A stretch of DNA of 64,000 nucleotides from Bimastos eiseni (lineage: Eukaryota; Annelida; Clitellata; Crassiclitellata; Lumbricidae). Shown here in pieces: positions 57,009 to 64,000 of this stretch; position 1 is the first letter of the stretch, and the number at the start of each line of letters is the position of its first letter. Location: positions 235,917 to 299,916 of the forward strand of contig OY365808.1 in assembly GCA_959347315.1 (NCBI GenBank), written 5' to 3'. Below the pieces are notes generated by a model. It was not told the origin of the DNA, searched no databases, and saw only the letters and a list, made by a program, of their open reading frames with translations. The translations under genes and the position numbers were made by a program.

Positions 57009-60000
57009 ATGGCAGAAAAGGATTATTCGCCGCTTAGCGCATCTTGCGTTAGAGCATTGAACGACAAATTGTACGAAAAGAGAAAAGTTGCCGCCTTGGA
57101 AATTGAGAAGTAAGCAGAATTAATATGTCATCTGCAATTATTTGATATGAAATTAATTGATTTGACACTCGATCATAAAACGAAGATGAAATGAAGAAGA
57201 CATTGGTTCTCATCAACGACCGATTTCGTTTTCTATTCTTCACTCATACATTTCCTGGGATCAGCCCAAATCATCGAAACCCGAATCCCCGAAAACGCTG
57301 AAAAGGCCAAAAGTCCGCTTCCCCAAAACAAAAAATGCAGTATTGAAAAACGCTTCACTGTCTGAAAACAGCGCAATTCTTTCATCAATCCAGTTTCGGC
57401 GTGAATCCTTTTCAACGATCCAGCTTCCATTTAAGCATAATCCTTTTCATCAGTCCCGCATTGTTTTCGGGGATACGGCGGAAATCAGTTTCGGGGATTC
57501 GGGTTTAGGCGATTCGCCACGCGCCCCATTTCCTTAGCTCAGGCGTATGTTGTATCTGACGAGACTGATAATTTAAATAATACCTAGCGCAAATCGTAGG
57601 AACCGCTGACATATAACGGCTTACTTTAAAACAACGTACGTTATGCAGCTTAGACTCACAGAGTTGCTGTTGATTGCAGAATGGTGAAAGAATATATGAC
57701 AAACAACAATGCAGTTCAAGTGAAGAAACTGCTTCGTGTTCTTGGCCAAGAATTCGCTCTGGCACAGAACGCAAACAGTCGCAAGGGCGGACTGATCGGA
57801 CTTGCGGCGTCTGCCATCGCCCTTGGAAAGGTCGGGTCAGAGTTCAGGTCATTATAGGATTTTAGAATGACTCATTAAGCATTATAATGGAGGGAGTTGT
57901 ACTCAATAAACTCCCCTTTGCCATCCATCAGCAGATGTCACATGTAAGCACAACTCACCTAACACGTGTTATGTTTAACATCTTGGTACATATGTTCCCC
58001 ACGGTCAGGTTTTGATTAAATTTCAATTCAATCCTGTTTATTGTAGCAAACAGCATTCAATGCACAAACGATGCAGATGTAAAGCAAGGGCTACAAAAGG
58101 AGGTCAAAAAGGGAAGAGAATGTTAATGTAATCGTGCATTTATATAGCACCCTTTCAAGACATCTACTCAGAGGCGATCAAGAAGGTCTTCCTTTTATTA
58201 CAAACTCAACGACTGATTGTCATTGTGTGGTAGGTTGATTGTCAGGTTCATGTGTAGAGTTTAGTGGTTTGGTCTTACATAGCCTCACAGGGTCTATTCA
58301 AAGTGTCTGGTTACAAGGTCTGGTTATAGGACTTCAGAGATGAAAGTCTGAACTTATAGAGGTTGACCTTTAGGTTTGACCCTGCTTGGCCGTGACTCCT
58401 TCTAGGGTTTGTTATTGACGTTGCTTCTTAGAGACCAGAATTGATGATTGCTGATCGAAATGTTCTTTATCTGTGTGTTGTCTGTTTGTTGTAGGATTCT
58501 CCTAATTACATAAACGACCTCGTTAAACCAGTCCTCACCTGTTTCTTCGACTCTGACAGTCGAGTCCGTTACTATGGATGTGAATCGCTTTACAACATCA
58601 TAAAAGTCGCTCGATCAGCCGTTCTGCCTTTCTTCAACGACATATTCGATGGACTTAGTAAGGTAAGGATTCAGTTGCAATAGATTGAAGGCAAGTGGAT
58701 GTCTTCTTCTGACTTTTTTCAAAGTTGTCTGCTGTATATTTGCTCAGCGCTGCGTCTGTCTGTCGATGACCTTTGCATTAGATACAGGAAGTTGGAAAAG
58801 CATTGAAAGCTTGTCGAATAATAAAGATAGGCAGTCTGAAAAAGACTGGTCAGTCTATATCCATATGAAGCAGCCATTGTTTGACTGGTTGAATGGTCTG
58901 ATGGTCATCTCCGTCTCTTCTTTTACTCTTTTACCTCAGATTTCTTTTACTTTTCAGCTCGCAGCAGATCCAGACCAAAATGTTCGCAGTGGATCGGAAC
59001 TTTTGGACAAACTAATGAAGGTCTTATTTCGATTTCTATAATTATAGGAATTTATAGATTATTATCTGTTTTTGCCAATCTATGTACTTGTTCCTTAACT
59101 CACCTTTTGATTCCATTCGCAAGTGTATATATCATACTGATGCATCAAGTGGGACAGATACTTCATGACCTCATTGACCCCTTGACCTTTGAGTTAAATT
59201 CACGAAATATTTTATTTCAATGATCCAACAACAGCTGTTTAGAGATGTGTCCTCACAAAAATACAACACGCACATCCTCTTTCTTTTCCATTGCATGCTA
59301 GCTTCTAGTTATTTGATTTACCACTGTGAGGTACCTGTTGTCTGTTGTACCTGTTGTCTGTTGTACCTGTTGTCTGTTGTACCTGTTGTCTGTTGTACCT
59401 GTTGTCTGTTGTACCTGTTGTCTGTTGTACCTGTTGTCTGTTGTACCTGTTGTCTGTTGTACCTGTTGTCTGTTGTACCTGTTGTCTGTTGTACCTGTTG
59501 TCTGTTGTACCTGTTGTCTGTTGTACCTGTTGTCTGTTGCACCTCTGTTGACTGCTGAACCTGTTGTTTGTGAGTTTTGTGTATGTGAAGTATAGGTCAT
59601 TTTTCAGTTGATTAATTTGTTGTATAATCTTCATTTTCTAGGACATTGTGACAGACAGCTGTGCCTTTGATCTTGTTGCTTTTATGCCGCTCTTACAAGA
59701 GAGAATTCTTACAAAGAATCCATTCTCCAGACAATTCATCGTCTCTTGGGTCAGTCTATTGTTTCATTTCTATCTCACACTTAATAATGAAGACCTCTGA
59801 GGAATTATTCAACGTCAGGTGAATGCGACAAATGGGTCACAACAGGTGAATGGGACAAATGATGTCAAACAGATCGTCGATGTTGCTTACAAGCCATGAA
59901 GGAGAAAATGAATATGGCATTATGAGTGAGTGTCTTACTGTCTTTGATTGATTATGGCTTGATTTTATTTTTGGTTTTATTTTTATTATGGTTTTATTTG

Positions 60001-63000
60001 ATCTAATTCTGGTGCTATATGAATGCTGTCTATTCCAGGTGAAGACATTGGACACAGTTCCTGATATGGAGATGATCATTTTTCTTCCAGAACTTCTCGA
60101 TGGACTCTTCCTCATTCTGGGAGACAACAATCATGAGATACGACAAATGTAAATTAATCTAAATTATGATTAATAAACAGATTTAGGGCAGGAAGGTTGT
60201 TCCAGTTAGCACTCATTGGATAAAGAAGTCCAGCTGATTATTTGTTATCTTAGCAAACAGAACGTCTACTGGTGATGACATCAATGAACTCACTCGATTT
60301 AACCATTGTTAAGACTATCCTATTTAAATGGGGGTTGGGTTGGTAGCACTTCTGAGTAAATGTCTTGAAGGGATGCTATATAAATCCTCCAAATAAATAT
60401 AATAGAAATTGTCTGACTTTTCCTTTGGTAGAATAGAATCTATGTCTCAGAAGAGAGAGTAATTAATGTTACTTTGGCATTGGCAGTGCCTCATGGAAGC
60501 ACCTCGACCAAACATCGCCTCACATTCTCGGTTGTTGGCCCTTCCACCTCGAACACACTCCCCTTAGAGATGCGACTGTTGCCGAGTAGACGTCTTAAAG
60601 GGGTGCTATATAAATGTAGAAATGAATGTATTTGTGTGATATTGAGAGTCTGATGTCACCTGTGACAGACGTTTTGTCGTCATGTACTTTTGTGCAGTCG
60701 TAGTTTTCTTCTGTTCAGGTGCGAAGGTGTTCTCGGTGAATTCCTGCTCAACATCGGAAAGGGAAAGAGCAAAGTGGAATTCCAGTCAATGGCCAACATT
60801 CTCGTTGTTCACAGCCAATCACAGGGTCAGTCGTCAATCCTCTTCCTCCTCCTCCTCCTCTTCCGTTGCTCCTCCTCCTCCTCCTCCATTTCCTCTCCAC
60901 CTCCTCTTCCATTGCTCCTCCTCTTCTTCCATTGCTCCTCTTCCTCCTCCTCTTCCATTGCTCCTCCTCTTCTTCCATTGCTCCTCTTCCTCCTCTTCTT
61001 CCATTGCTCCTCTTCCTCCTCCTCTTCCATTGCTCCTCCTCTTCTTCCATTGCTCCTCTTCCTCCTCCTCTTCCATTGCTCCTCCTCTTCTTCCATTGCT
61101 CCTCTTCCTCCTCCTCTTCCATTGCTCCTCCTCTTCTTCCATTGCTCCTCTTCCTCCTCTTCTTCCATTGCTCCTCTTCCTCCTCCTCTTCCATTGCTCC
61201 TCCTCTTCTTCCATTGCTCCTCTTCCTCCTCCTCTTCCATTGCTCCTCCTCTTCTTCCATTGCTCCTCTTCCTCCTCCTCTTCCATTGCTCCTCCTCTTC
61301 TTCCATTGCTCCTCTTCCTCCTCCTCTTCCATTGCTCCTCCTCTTCTTCCATTGCTCCTCTTCCTCCTCTTCTTCCATTGCTCCTCTTCCTCCTCCTCTT
61401 CCATTGCTCCTCCTCTTCTTCCATTGCTCCTCTTCCTCCTCCTCTTCCATTGCTCCTCCTCTTCTTCCATTGCTCCTCTTCCTCCTCCTCTTCCATTGCT
61501 CCTCCTCTTCTTCCATTGCTCCTCTTCCTCCTCCTCTTCCATTGCTCCTCCTCTTCTTCCATTGCTCCTCTTCCTCCTCCTCTTCCATTGCTCCTCCTCT
61601 TCTTCCATTGCTCCTCTTCCTCCTCCTCTTCCATTGCTCCTCCTCTTCTTCCATTGCTCCTCTTCCTCCTCTTCTTCCATTGCTCCTCTTCCTCCTCCTC
61701 TTCCATTGCTCCTCCTCTTCTTCCATTGCTCCTCTTCCTCCTCCTCTTCCATTGCTCCTCCTCTTCTTCCATTGCTCCTCTTCCTCCTCCTCTTCCATTG
61801 CTCCTCTTCCTCCTCCTCCTCCATTGCTCCTCCTCCTCCTCCTCCTCCATTTCCTCTCCTCTTCTGCTTCTGCCTTCTCCTGCTACAATGAAGAGGTGTT
61901 ATGCTGAGGTCATTTCCAGGGGCTGAGGTTATTTTATGATCCATCTTATTCATTCATTCGTTCTTTCATTCATTCATTCAATGCAAAGTTCGATGTAGCG
62001 CCCCTTCAAGGTTACTGCTGAGGAGCGCAAATGAGTTGAGCTTTGAGCAGAGAAAAGTCAGCCATTTCTATGATCAGTTGATGCATTGCAATTGGCAAAG
62101 GAGTTTCTGGTTTGTTTCTGATGATTGGAGGAAGTGATGTGTGATGTCGTTTTGGTTGATTGCTTCTCTTTCAGATGATTTGATTCAGTTCACAGCGATC
62201 TCTTGGCTCAAGGAATTCATTCATTTGTCTGGATTGGCGATGCTTCCGTTCGCTTCTGGAATCCTTGCATCCGTTCTTCCGTGTCTCGCTTATGACAACG
62301 AATCAAAACTCAGAATCCTTTTTGGCCAATAAACTAAATAATACAGTCTATGTTTTTAATTTCATGTGACTTATTCACTGGGTAAAGGACGGTGGAAAAT
62401 GACTAATGGTCAGTTACTGAACTCGGTTCTGTGAGCACTTATGAGTCCAGAGTAAAGAACACGCCCTGTGTAATTGGTAAGCCAGAATAAAGATGAACCC
62501 AAGTGAAGATGAACCTGGGATAGAGATGAGCCCAGAGCAGAGATGTGTGTGTGTGTGTGTGTGAGTGAGTGCGTGTGTGTGGTGTATTCGAGAGATGAGC
62601 ACGCGACATGTGATGATGATGAGATGATGAAATACTTTTTTTGCTTTCATCCAATGATGACGTCAACAGATGAAGACAGACAGAGGCCTTGTCTTGGCTT
62701 TGATGCTTTTGCAGACAATTGTTGGAGAAAGTTGAGACTGTTTGATAAACTGTTCATAAGCGTGTTGGGTGGAATTGGGTGTCACGGTGGGATTGGATGT
62801 CGCGGTGGGGTTGGGTGTCATGGTGGGATTGGGTGTCATGGTGGAATTGGGTGTCACAGTGCGATTGTATGTCGCAGTGGGGTTGGGTGTCACGGTGGGA
62901 TTGGGTGTCATGGTGGGATTGGGTGTTGCGGTGGGATTGGATGTCGCGGTGGGGTTGGGTGTCACGGTGGGATTGGGTGTCACGGCGGGATTGGATGTCG

Positions 63001-63336
63001 CGGTGGGGTTGGGTGTCACGGTGGGATTGGGTATCATGGTGGGATTGGGTGTTGCGGTGGGATTGGGTGTCGCGGTGGGATTGGGTGTCACGATGGAATT
63101 GGGTGTCACGGTGAGGTGGGTGTCAGAGTGGTAGTGGGTGTCTGGGTAAATTTCATGTTATTTTCAGGAAAGTCATTAGGCATAGAAAGCAGTTGAATAT
63201 TAATTATTGATGATAAAGCTAACTGATGACGTGGGTGTGTGTGTGTGTAGATTTCTTTCTTAATTAGTCCTTAGATATACGTGAAGCGGCCAAATCCGTG
63301 AATGATGGTCTAATGAAACTTGTTCAGGGAGAAGAC
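57009..63336 (+). CDS. VAC14: VAC14, scaffold of the PIKfyve/FIG4 complex; runs off the right edge
   Basis: HEAT-repeat scaffold that holds the PI3P 5-kinase PIKfyve and phosphatase FIG4 on endolysosomes, controlling PI(3,5)P2. Exons: 57009-57109, 57680-57830, 58495-58662, 58958-59020, 59642-59749, 60039-60148, 60719-60825, 62175-62312, 63275-63336 (last donor GTAACA tentative). This gives 336 residues; the human protein is about 780, so more than half lies outside. Landmarks: [124 protein letters not shown] and [13 protein letters not shown], all in human order. The ATG has A at -3 and G at +4. Donors GTCGGG and GTCTTA are weak. The 62312/63275 junction requires a non-GT donor that fits the U12 consensus. 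Introns hold three minisatellites and LINE ends. Confidence 0.93.
57245..57535 (-). repeat. CCGAAACCC-family foldback repeat, inverted copy
   Basis: The reverse-orientation copy lies in VAC14 intron 1. It starts CATCGAAACCCGAATCCCCG and ends GGGATTCGGGTTTAGGCG, with GGCCAAAAGTCC and CATCAATCC words between. Confidence 0.7.
58130..58190 (-). mobile_element. LINE 3' tail fragment
   Basis: On the minus strand, GAGTAGATGTCTTGAAAGGG then GTGCTATATAAATGCACG match the tail of the other LINE ends. It lies in VAC14 intron 2. Confidence 0.6.
59333..59540. repeat. 16-bp minisatellite (ACCTGTTGTCTGTTGT)
   Basis: About 12 near-perfect copies lie in VAC14 intron 4. Because 16 bp is not a multiple of three, all frames cycle through the same peptide; none contains a stop, so long artefact frames appear on both strands. 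Confidence 0.95.
60283..60395 (+). mobile_element. LINE 3' end fragment A
   Basis: Ends with GAGTAAATGTCTTGAAGGG and ATGCTATATAAATCC, the recurrent LINE tail, preceded by a decayed RT C-terminus. In VAC14 intron 6. Confidence 0.55.
60484..60625 (+). mobile_element. LINE 3' end fragment B
   Basis: The frame encodes [20 protein letters not shown], comparable to the VGP..WN.LP..LR motif of LINE RT C-termini. It is followed by CGTCTTAAAGGGGTGCTATA. In VAC14 intron 6. Confidence 0.7.
60838..61855. repeat. 1-kb pyrimidine minisatellite, about 46-bp unit
   Basis: About 20 copies of a unit made of CTCCTCTTCCTCCTCCTCTT, CCATTGCTCCTCCTCTTC and TTCCATTG lie in VAC14 intron 7, beginning about 12 bp after the exon 7 donor. 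The + strand is nearly all pyrimidine. Lack of stops yields open frames of 320-415 codons in several frames on both strands, which are artefacts. Some units carry CTTCTTCCATTG in place of CTCTTCCATTG, giving higher-order alternation. Confidence 0.96.
61975..62030 (-). mobile_element. LINE 3' tail fragment
   Basis: On the minus strand, TCAGCAGTAACCTTGAAGGG then GCGCTACATCG and (TGAA)n match the LINE tail. In VAC14 intron 7. Confidence 0.5.
62766..63125. repeat. 18-bp minisatellite (GGTGTCACGGTGGGATTG)
   Basis: About 20 imperfect copies lie in VAC14 intron 8. As 18 is a multiple of three, each frame repeats a six-residue motif (for example GCHGGI), creating a false 217-codon frame from 62543 to 63196. 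Confidence 0.93.
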
Positions 63337-64000
63337 GTAACAGTCGGTCAGTCAGTGGCAATTCCCTTCTTTACGCTCATATTATCGATTGAATGTACGT
63401 GTGTTGGTGATGGCTCAACGAAACAAAACTGGTGAGAGTTGGGTCGTCTAAGAAATGAAGGTAGCACATTGAGGATGAGCAATATGAAATGGATGATGCA
63501 ATTGGTTGAAAATGAAATTACATTTGATTATGGACTGAGCAGAGATGGATGGATGGACGGACGGACGGACGGACGGACGGATGGATGGACGGACACAGGA
63601 AGAGGGTTCCAAATCTAGGTCTGGCAATCAAAAGAGTTGTTTGCTAAGAACATAGCAGTGTAAAGAAAGCAGTGTTTAGTTGTTTTTGGTCGTCCTTGTT
63701 ATCAGCATAATCAAATTACATATAGTCACTGTGTACTTATGTTTAAACAAAAGAGTAATAACAACTGTAAATTTATTCTATTCTATTTACGGATTTATGA
63801 AGCGCCTCTCACAGTACAACCTAATCAGAGGCCCTCCCAGTGCGAGAAACCCCTAGAGAAAAGAAAAGTCTTAAGAGAACGAGCAGAAACAGTTGTGCTA
63901 CTAGATAAGATTGCAGCACGAGTAACAGCAAGAAGGCTGTTCCATAGCAAAGGGTCAACAGAGGCATAGGCACGATGTTGAGCTGTGGCAGTTCTAGACT
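63337..64000. other. Right edge: VAC14 intron 9 sequence
   Basis: No further VAC14 exon is recognised before the window ends. A GGAC/GGAT tetranucleotide run lies at 63545-63594. From about 63760, TTTATGAAGCGCCTCTCAC and the following open frame look repeat-derived but match no family I can name. Confidence 0.5.

What the first reader, a model, noticed from the sequence alone, without database searches (positions are those of the whole stretch)
62300..63290. Candidate U12-type intron with a GA dinucleotide donor in VAC14
After the conserved PCLAYD segment of exon 8 there is no usable GT donor before an in-frame TAA. Homology and phase both require exon 8 to end at 62312 (one base into a codon) and exon 9 to start at 63275. 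The bases starting at 62313 read GAATCCTTT, which matches the U12 donor consensus RTATCCTTT at every position except +2 (A for T). Near the acceptor, TTTCTTAAT is close to the U12 branch consensus TTCCTTAAY, with the branch A about 12 nt before the AG and no long pyrimidine tract between. The join restores [10 protein letters not shown]. Either this is a minor-spliceosome GA-AG intron or the reference has an error at one base.
Basis: partly seen in the sequence, partly recalled or inferred. Interest (0 to 1): 0.75.

Follow-up and report, generated by a model that had tools for sequence, protein, structure and literature searches.

The report
U12 intron with GA donor, VAC14
In a probable annelid worm, one intron of the housekeeping gene VAC14 carries the signals of the rare minor spliceosome but starts with GA instead of the usual GT or AT; such introns are rare but already known, so this is a good new example rather than a new kind of thing.

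Summary
VAC14 looks single-copy with an open frame, in a probable annelid. Exon 8 ends at 62312 and exon 9 starts at 63275, phase 1. The closest homologue (82% identical, from a transcript-sized contig) has the same residue count across the join and the same Asn at the split codon. No GT starts between 62284 and 62345, and the open frame stops at 62330-62332. The donor GAATCCTTT has one mismatch to RTATCCTTT; the branch site TTTCTTAAT puts its A 11 nt from the final G; U1 complementarity is 2 of 9. The genome encodes U11, U12, U4atac and U6atac above Rfam thresholds. Gene models of other animals carry extra residues at this junction; Nymphon's NILF and an elephant shrew's NIL are what read-through of a phase-1 ATATCCTTT donor would give, so a U12 intron here is probably old. 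A published U12 intron (STX6) in this genome reads ATATCCTTT...AG, also non-standard. Best reading: an old U12 intron with A at donor position +2. Not shown: that GA is real in the species and spliced; no reads were available, so a reference error or rare allele remains possible. GA-AG U12 introns were reported in 2010 (zebrafish actr10): a new member of a known kind.

The parts
57009..60825 (+). VAC14 exons 1-7 with their introns (exons 57009-57109, 57680-57830, 58495-58662, 58958-59020, 59642-59749, 60039-60148, 60719-60825), introns GT-AG
   Evidence: assembled by hand from reading frames and homology; Vac14_Fab1_bd domain on exon 3
62175..62312 (+). VAC14 exon 8, ends one base into a codon
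   Evidence: homologue alignment
62313..62321 (+). U12-type donor GAATCCTTT (consensus RTATCCTTT; A at +2)
62330..62332 (+). in-frame TAA met if the intron is not removed
62313..63274 (+). intron 8, 962 nt, phase 1, GA-AG
62768..63142 (+). 18-nt minisatellite inside intron 8 (about 21 copies)
63256..63264 (+). branch site TTTCTTAAT, branch A at 63263
63273..63274 (+). acceptor AG, 11 nt from branch A to last base
63275..63342 (+). VAC14 exon 9 (3' end provisional)

Best explanation
VAC14 intron 8 is an old, phase-1 U12-type (minor) intron. In this animal the second donor base is A, which makes it GA-AG. Inferred mechanism: U11 snRNA pairs with the donor from +4 on, U6atac later pairs with the same bases, and U12 pairs with TTTCTTAAT (its one departure from consensus leaves a G-U pair), which puts the branch A 11 nt from AG. 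The +2 change touches only bases read by the U11-48K protein, so recognition should be weakened rather than abolished, with splicing perhaps slower and some intron retention. Shown: junction, motifs, snRNA genes. Inferred: that RNA is spliced there and that GA is fixed in the species.
For: Join preserves length and Asn of the 82% homologue P0001; donor 8 of 9, branch site 1 mismatch, 11-nt spacing, U1 match 2 of 9; U11, U12, U4atac and two U6atac genes over gathering score with intact pairing segments; predicted U11 and U6atac pairing with the GA site is no weaker than with a GU version of it; NILF (Nymphon) and NIL (Elephantulus) at this junction in gene models; published U12 intron of STX6 present here with ATATCCTTT donor; GA-AG U12 intron known in zebrafish actr10 (PMC2831892); U11 does not pair with the first three bases, U11-48K reads them (PMC3584512; PMC7367187).
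Against: No RNA or genomic reads. Three other same-length joins fit the protein profile almost as well, 1-2 bits, so the exact boundary rests on the motifs. The U11-48K zinc finger was not found (a 25-residue model in a 660-Mb genome, so weak evidence). From recall, a mutational study (Dietrich 2005, not held) found most +2 changes harmful to U12 splicing. 105 of 120 homologues carry no extra residues at the junction and say nothing about intron type.
Confidence: 0.66

Rival explanations
1. The intron is an ordinary U12 GT-AG intron; the A at 62314 is an assembly error, or a rare or heterozygous loss-of-function allele captured in the reference.
For: A T at this one base would give a perfect GTATCCTTT; 15 of the 16 donors listed for this gene begin GT, one of them a perfect GTATCCTTT (two of the 15 are provisional); no reads to check.
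Against: The assembly is long (118 contigs for 660 Mb), which suggests long reads, though their accuracy is unknown; no second copy or haplotig with another base was found; [quoted passage not shown]
Confidence: 0.22
2. The major (U2) spliceosome removes the intron through a non-canonical GA site, or uses another junction such as GC at 62325.
For: U2-like GA-AG introns exist (FGFR genes, PMC4176328; many GA-AG introns in Eurytemora and Oikopleura, PMC7072748); the GC join at 62325 keeps the frame.
Against: U1 match 2 of 9 and +5 is C; those GA sites are flanked by upstream AG, here it is CA; the GC join scores 7 bits lower and adds four residues.
Confidence: 0.05
3. The donor is broken and VAC14 intron 8 is retained or the gene is decaying.
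For: Retention meets a TAA after six codons.
Against: Apparently single copy; no stop or frame break in the 16 exons assembled (last exon and linker not fully resolved); the window's branch in the tree is not longer than that of P0001.
Confidence: 0.04

Closest known systems
GA-AG U12-type intron of zebrafish actr10 (Lin et al. 2010, PMC2831892; abstract and passages seen)
   Same: U12-type intron with GA donor and AG acceptor in an otherwise conserved gene; other species have standard termini there.
   Different: Different gene and phylum; here the state in close relatives is unknown and no transcript was seen.
STX6 U12-type intron (Lin et al. 2010, Table 2, AT-AC in fly and human; section seen), as found in this genome
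   Same: Phase 1, ATCCTTT core, branch site with one pyrimidine change, 11-nt spacing, AG end, non-standard pair of termini.
   Different: Donor AT (AT-AG) instead of GA.
U2-type GA-AG introns (FGFR genes; Eurytemora, Oikopleura; PMC4176328 and PMC7072748, passages)
   Same: GA-AG termini.
   Different: Those have U1-like flanks; this donor has the U12 core and little U1 match.

Membership tests
U12-type (minor) intron | Donor RTATCCTTT | tested here: met
   8 of 9; +2 is A. The ATCCTTT core is exact.
U12-type (minor) intron | Branch site near TTCCTTRAY with A about 11-13 nt from the end | tested here: met
   TTTCTTAAT, 1 mismatch, 11 nt; optimum 11-13 nt (PMC3584512, passage)
U12-type (minor) intron | Standard termini GT-AG or AT-AC | tested here: not met
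   GA-AG. Not strictly defining: the review passage calls donor and branch sequences the defining features, and GA-AG cases are on record.
U12-type (minor) intron | Minor spliceosome present in the genome | tested here: met
   U11, U12, U4atac, U6atac; PDCD7. U11-48K finger not found.
U12-type (minor) intron | U12-type intron at the orthologous position in other species | tested here: inconclusive
   Protein models only: NILF in Nymphon, NIL in Elephantulus. Genomic DNA of these was not available.
U12-type (minor) intron | Removal depends on U11/U12 snRNPs | not testable with these tools
   needs an experiment
U2-type GA-AG intron | U1-compatible donor flank | tested here: not met
   2 of 9 matches to CAGGTAAGT; CA, not AG, before the donor

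The most novel reading that the evidence does not exclude
In this annelid lineage the minor spliceosome has relaxed its reading of the intron ends: both introns examined here that have a U12 donor core and a good branch site show non-standard pairs (VAC14 GA-AG, STX6 AT-AG), pointing to a changed U11-48K or other end-reading factor and to many more such introns genome-wide.
Probability: 0.12. Interest if true: 0.68.

Novelty: new member of a known kind. Interest (0 to 1): 0.4.

Why it matters
If real, it is a natural test of what base +2 does in minor splicing: the U11 and U6atac pairing segments are intact, so any loss can be charged to U11-48K recognition. It also shows how gene finders extend or lose exons at such introns, and offers VAC14 and STX6 as probes for relaxed termini in annelids.

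Tried and rejected
Mini-exon: rejected, because exon 8 has no GT between 62283 and its stop and P0001 has no extra residues. Other joins of equal length (AG-TA, AA-GA, AT-AT) lose only 1-2 bits by protein profile but match no known donor and acceptor pattern. GA-AC drops two residues and 7 bits. Second copy or haplotig: none found.

More relatives by region searches: the Nymphon query returned only itself. The Elephantulus query (561 proteins, best 120 listed) gave no further NIL: of 224 proteins then held, 158 fitted a vertebrate-type junction motif, and 2 of these had extra residues, P0088 (NILS) and P0121 (RSSG, which does not spell a donor).

U11-48K zinc finger: no match. PHB2 as a further U12 control: not recognised; word matches in the fetched stretches looked like prohibitin 1, judged from recall. 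KCMF1 and LSM12 controls: not completed. Predicted U12 duplexes did not separate a U12 branch site from a U2 one, so they are not used. The first exon assembly had wrong ends and was corrected. Solved structures: 0 matches at E 0.001. Rfam scan of the window at gathering scores: 0.

Full report
What is there. The window is G000:C3:235917-299916, strand +, of a 660-Mb genome in 118 contigs. Its right end holds VAC14, read from 57009 to about 73129 (window coordinates; the part past 64000 is from L002). I assembled 16 exons; the linker between exons 9 and 10, the end of exon 13 and the last exon are provisional. Of 16 donors listed, 15 begin GT (two of them, after 63342 and 69108, are guesses in poorly conserved stretches) and one, after exon 8, begins GA. 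The gene looks single-copy: a 180-base stretch with exon 8 matches once in the genome, and the C-terminal Vac14 domain has four matches, all within one 2.3-kb stretch of the same gene. In a 22-protein tree the window's protein and its closest homologue P0001 group with the annelids Ridgeia and Owenia (support 0.96 and 0.97), so the animal is probably an annelid. That tree is rough: nemerteans fall beside arthropods at low support.

The junction. P0001 is 82% identical over the whole query and comes from a 2,586-base contig of source 'lgn', by its size a transcript (I take lgn to mean the Logan assemblies, from recall). Across the join it has the same number of residues and the same Asn. Asn or Ser stands in this alignment column in 93 of 120 listed homologues (63 and 30); both fit an A before the intron, as here. 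Three other same-length joins are only 1-2 bits worse by protein profile, so the exact boundary is fixed by the splice motifs, not by the protein alone. Reading on to the stop costs about 519 bits and skipping exons 8 and 9 about 111.

The motifs. The donor matches U12 consensus at 8 of 9 positions and U1 consensus at 2 of 9. The branch site has 1 mismatch and its A lies 11 nt from the intron end; none of the other assembled introns combines the two. With the window's own rates, such a pair at a fixed junction has a chance of about 6e-7, or 4e-6 with slack.

The machinery. The genome holds U11 (100.3 bits), U12 (119.5), two U6atac (103.1 and 100.6) and U4atac (77.1), all above Rfam gathering scores. 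U11 begins UAAAAGGGCU, U6atac carries GAAAGGAGAGA and U12 carries GAGUAAGGAA, so the parts that would pair with this donor and branch site are intact. Predicted pairing with U11 and U6atac is no weaker for the GA site than for a GU version of it. PDCD7 (U11-59K) gave two exon matches. The U11-48K finger gave none, with a 25-residue model.

Age of the intron. Of 120 listed homologues, 15 have more than seven residues between the conserved Tyr and Ile of this segment; 105 have six or seven. Ten of the 15 share one tick-type insertion (three are named: Haemaphysalis, Dermacentor, Amblyomma), so events are far fewer than sequences. In Nymphon striatum the extra residues are NILF, then A; in Elephantulus edwardii NIL, then S. 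A|ATATCCTTT read on in phase 1 gives N-I-L-F. This is what a gene finder may do when it cannot use the real donor. In the window the same read-through gives R-I-L-F. The effect can be seen inside this genome: exon 1 of STX6 reads on as EETI-NIL-stop through A|ATATCCTTTAAG. The other insertions do not spell a donor that I can recognise, apart perhaps from NLLF in P0055. I could not see the DNA of Nymphon or Elephantulus, so this is inference.

A published control. STX6 intron 1 of the fly is U12 AT-AC in fly and human (PMC2831892, section with Table 2 seen). Here (C5:21999094-22000239) a gene with the STX6 N-terminal domain has a perfect ATATCCTTT donor, branch site TTCTTTAAC with branch A 22000228, and an AG acceptor giving Ser-Ile-Val-Glu at the join, which agrees with human STX6 as I recall it. 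So it reads AT-AG here, another non-standard pair; U12-like AT-AG sites turned into GT-AG by A-to-I RNA editing are on record in human (PMC4176328, passage), so the odd pair may vanish in RNA. That way out does not exist for GA. A second gene with this domain on C2 has a GT donor without U12 consensus. VAC14 intron 14 has a perfect GTATCCTTT but a poor branch site (3 mismatches), and a 31-nt minisatellite begins at its +4 position; I leave its type open.

How it would work. U11 does not pair with the first three intron bases; U11-48K reads them (PMC3584512 and PMC7367187, passages). An A at +2 therefore spares the snRNA helices and should weaken only this protein contact. I expect splicing to occur, possibly slowly. 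This is inference, and against it stands a mutational study that I know only from recall (Dietrich 2005, not held), in which most +2 changes were harmful; Lin et al. remark that no splicing data contradict GA-AG.

What is known. Lin et al. 2010 report one GA-AG U12 intron, zebrafish actr10, among six unambiguous non-canonical cases (PMC2831892). A 2021 review lists GA-AG among rare minor termini (PMC8199999, passage). [quoted passage not shown] U2-like or unassigned GA-AG introns are also known (PMC4176328, PMC4528330, PMC7072748, passages). VAC14 with 'U12-type intron' and with 'minor intron' gave 0 papers; a wider search found 219 papers with at least two of five terms, and the 40 listed hold no VAC14. 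Supplementary tables and intron databases could not be searched, so VAC14 may well be listed there.

Verdict. A U12-type intron at this place: very likely. A true, fixed GA donor: more likely than not, unproven. It is a new member of a known rare kind. The most interesting open lead is whether this lineage tolerates odd U12 ends widely; two introns, one of them given to me because it looked odd, are too few to say.

Noticed in passing
L017:3095-4240 (G000:C5:21999094-22000239): STX6-domain gene with a perfect ATATCCTTT donor and an AG acceptor 11 nt after the branch A: AT-AG in this genome, AT-AC in fly and human according to Lin et al.
   Followed up: partly
L019-L020 (G000:C2, around 34860589-34862157): A second gene with the STX6 N-terminal domain has a phase-1 intron at the corresponding place with a GT donor that lacks the U12 consensus, perhaps a converted intron.
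   Followed up: partly
L002:6067-6233 (window coordinates 69950-70116): VAC14 intron 14 starts with a perfect U12 donor GTATCCTTT, but a 31-nt minisatellite (about 5 copies) begins at its +4 base and the branch site is poor.
   Followed up: partly
window 60844-61865, 59331-59571, 62768-63142: VAC14 introns 4, 7 and 8 carry large minisatellites (16-nt unit; 46/164/210-nt C+T-rich unit; 18-nt unit).
   Followed up: no
VAC14 homologues P0027, P0029, P0030, P0034, P0036, P0037, P0040, P0043, P0052, P0068: Ten tick-type VAC14 models share an insertion like ESPPHAHAAD at this intron position, while Ixodes (P0016) and Ornithodoros (P0024) lack it, which suggests an altered or alternative splice site in hard ticks.
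   Followed up: no
L009 and L010 (G000:C13 and C1): Two U6atac genes of nearly equal score on different contigs, nearly identical in sequence.
   Followed up: no
L002:391-1467, minus strand: A 358-residue reading frame that looks like a reverse transcriptase of a non-LTR element, judged by eye, lies in the long VAC14 intron 9.
   Followed up: no
window 57403 (+) and 55476 (-): GAATCCTTTTC also occurs in two other places, in stretches with similar translated peptides, probably copies of one repeat; not splice sites as far as seen.
   Followed up: no
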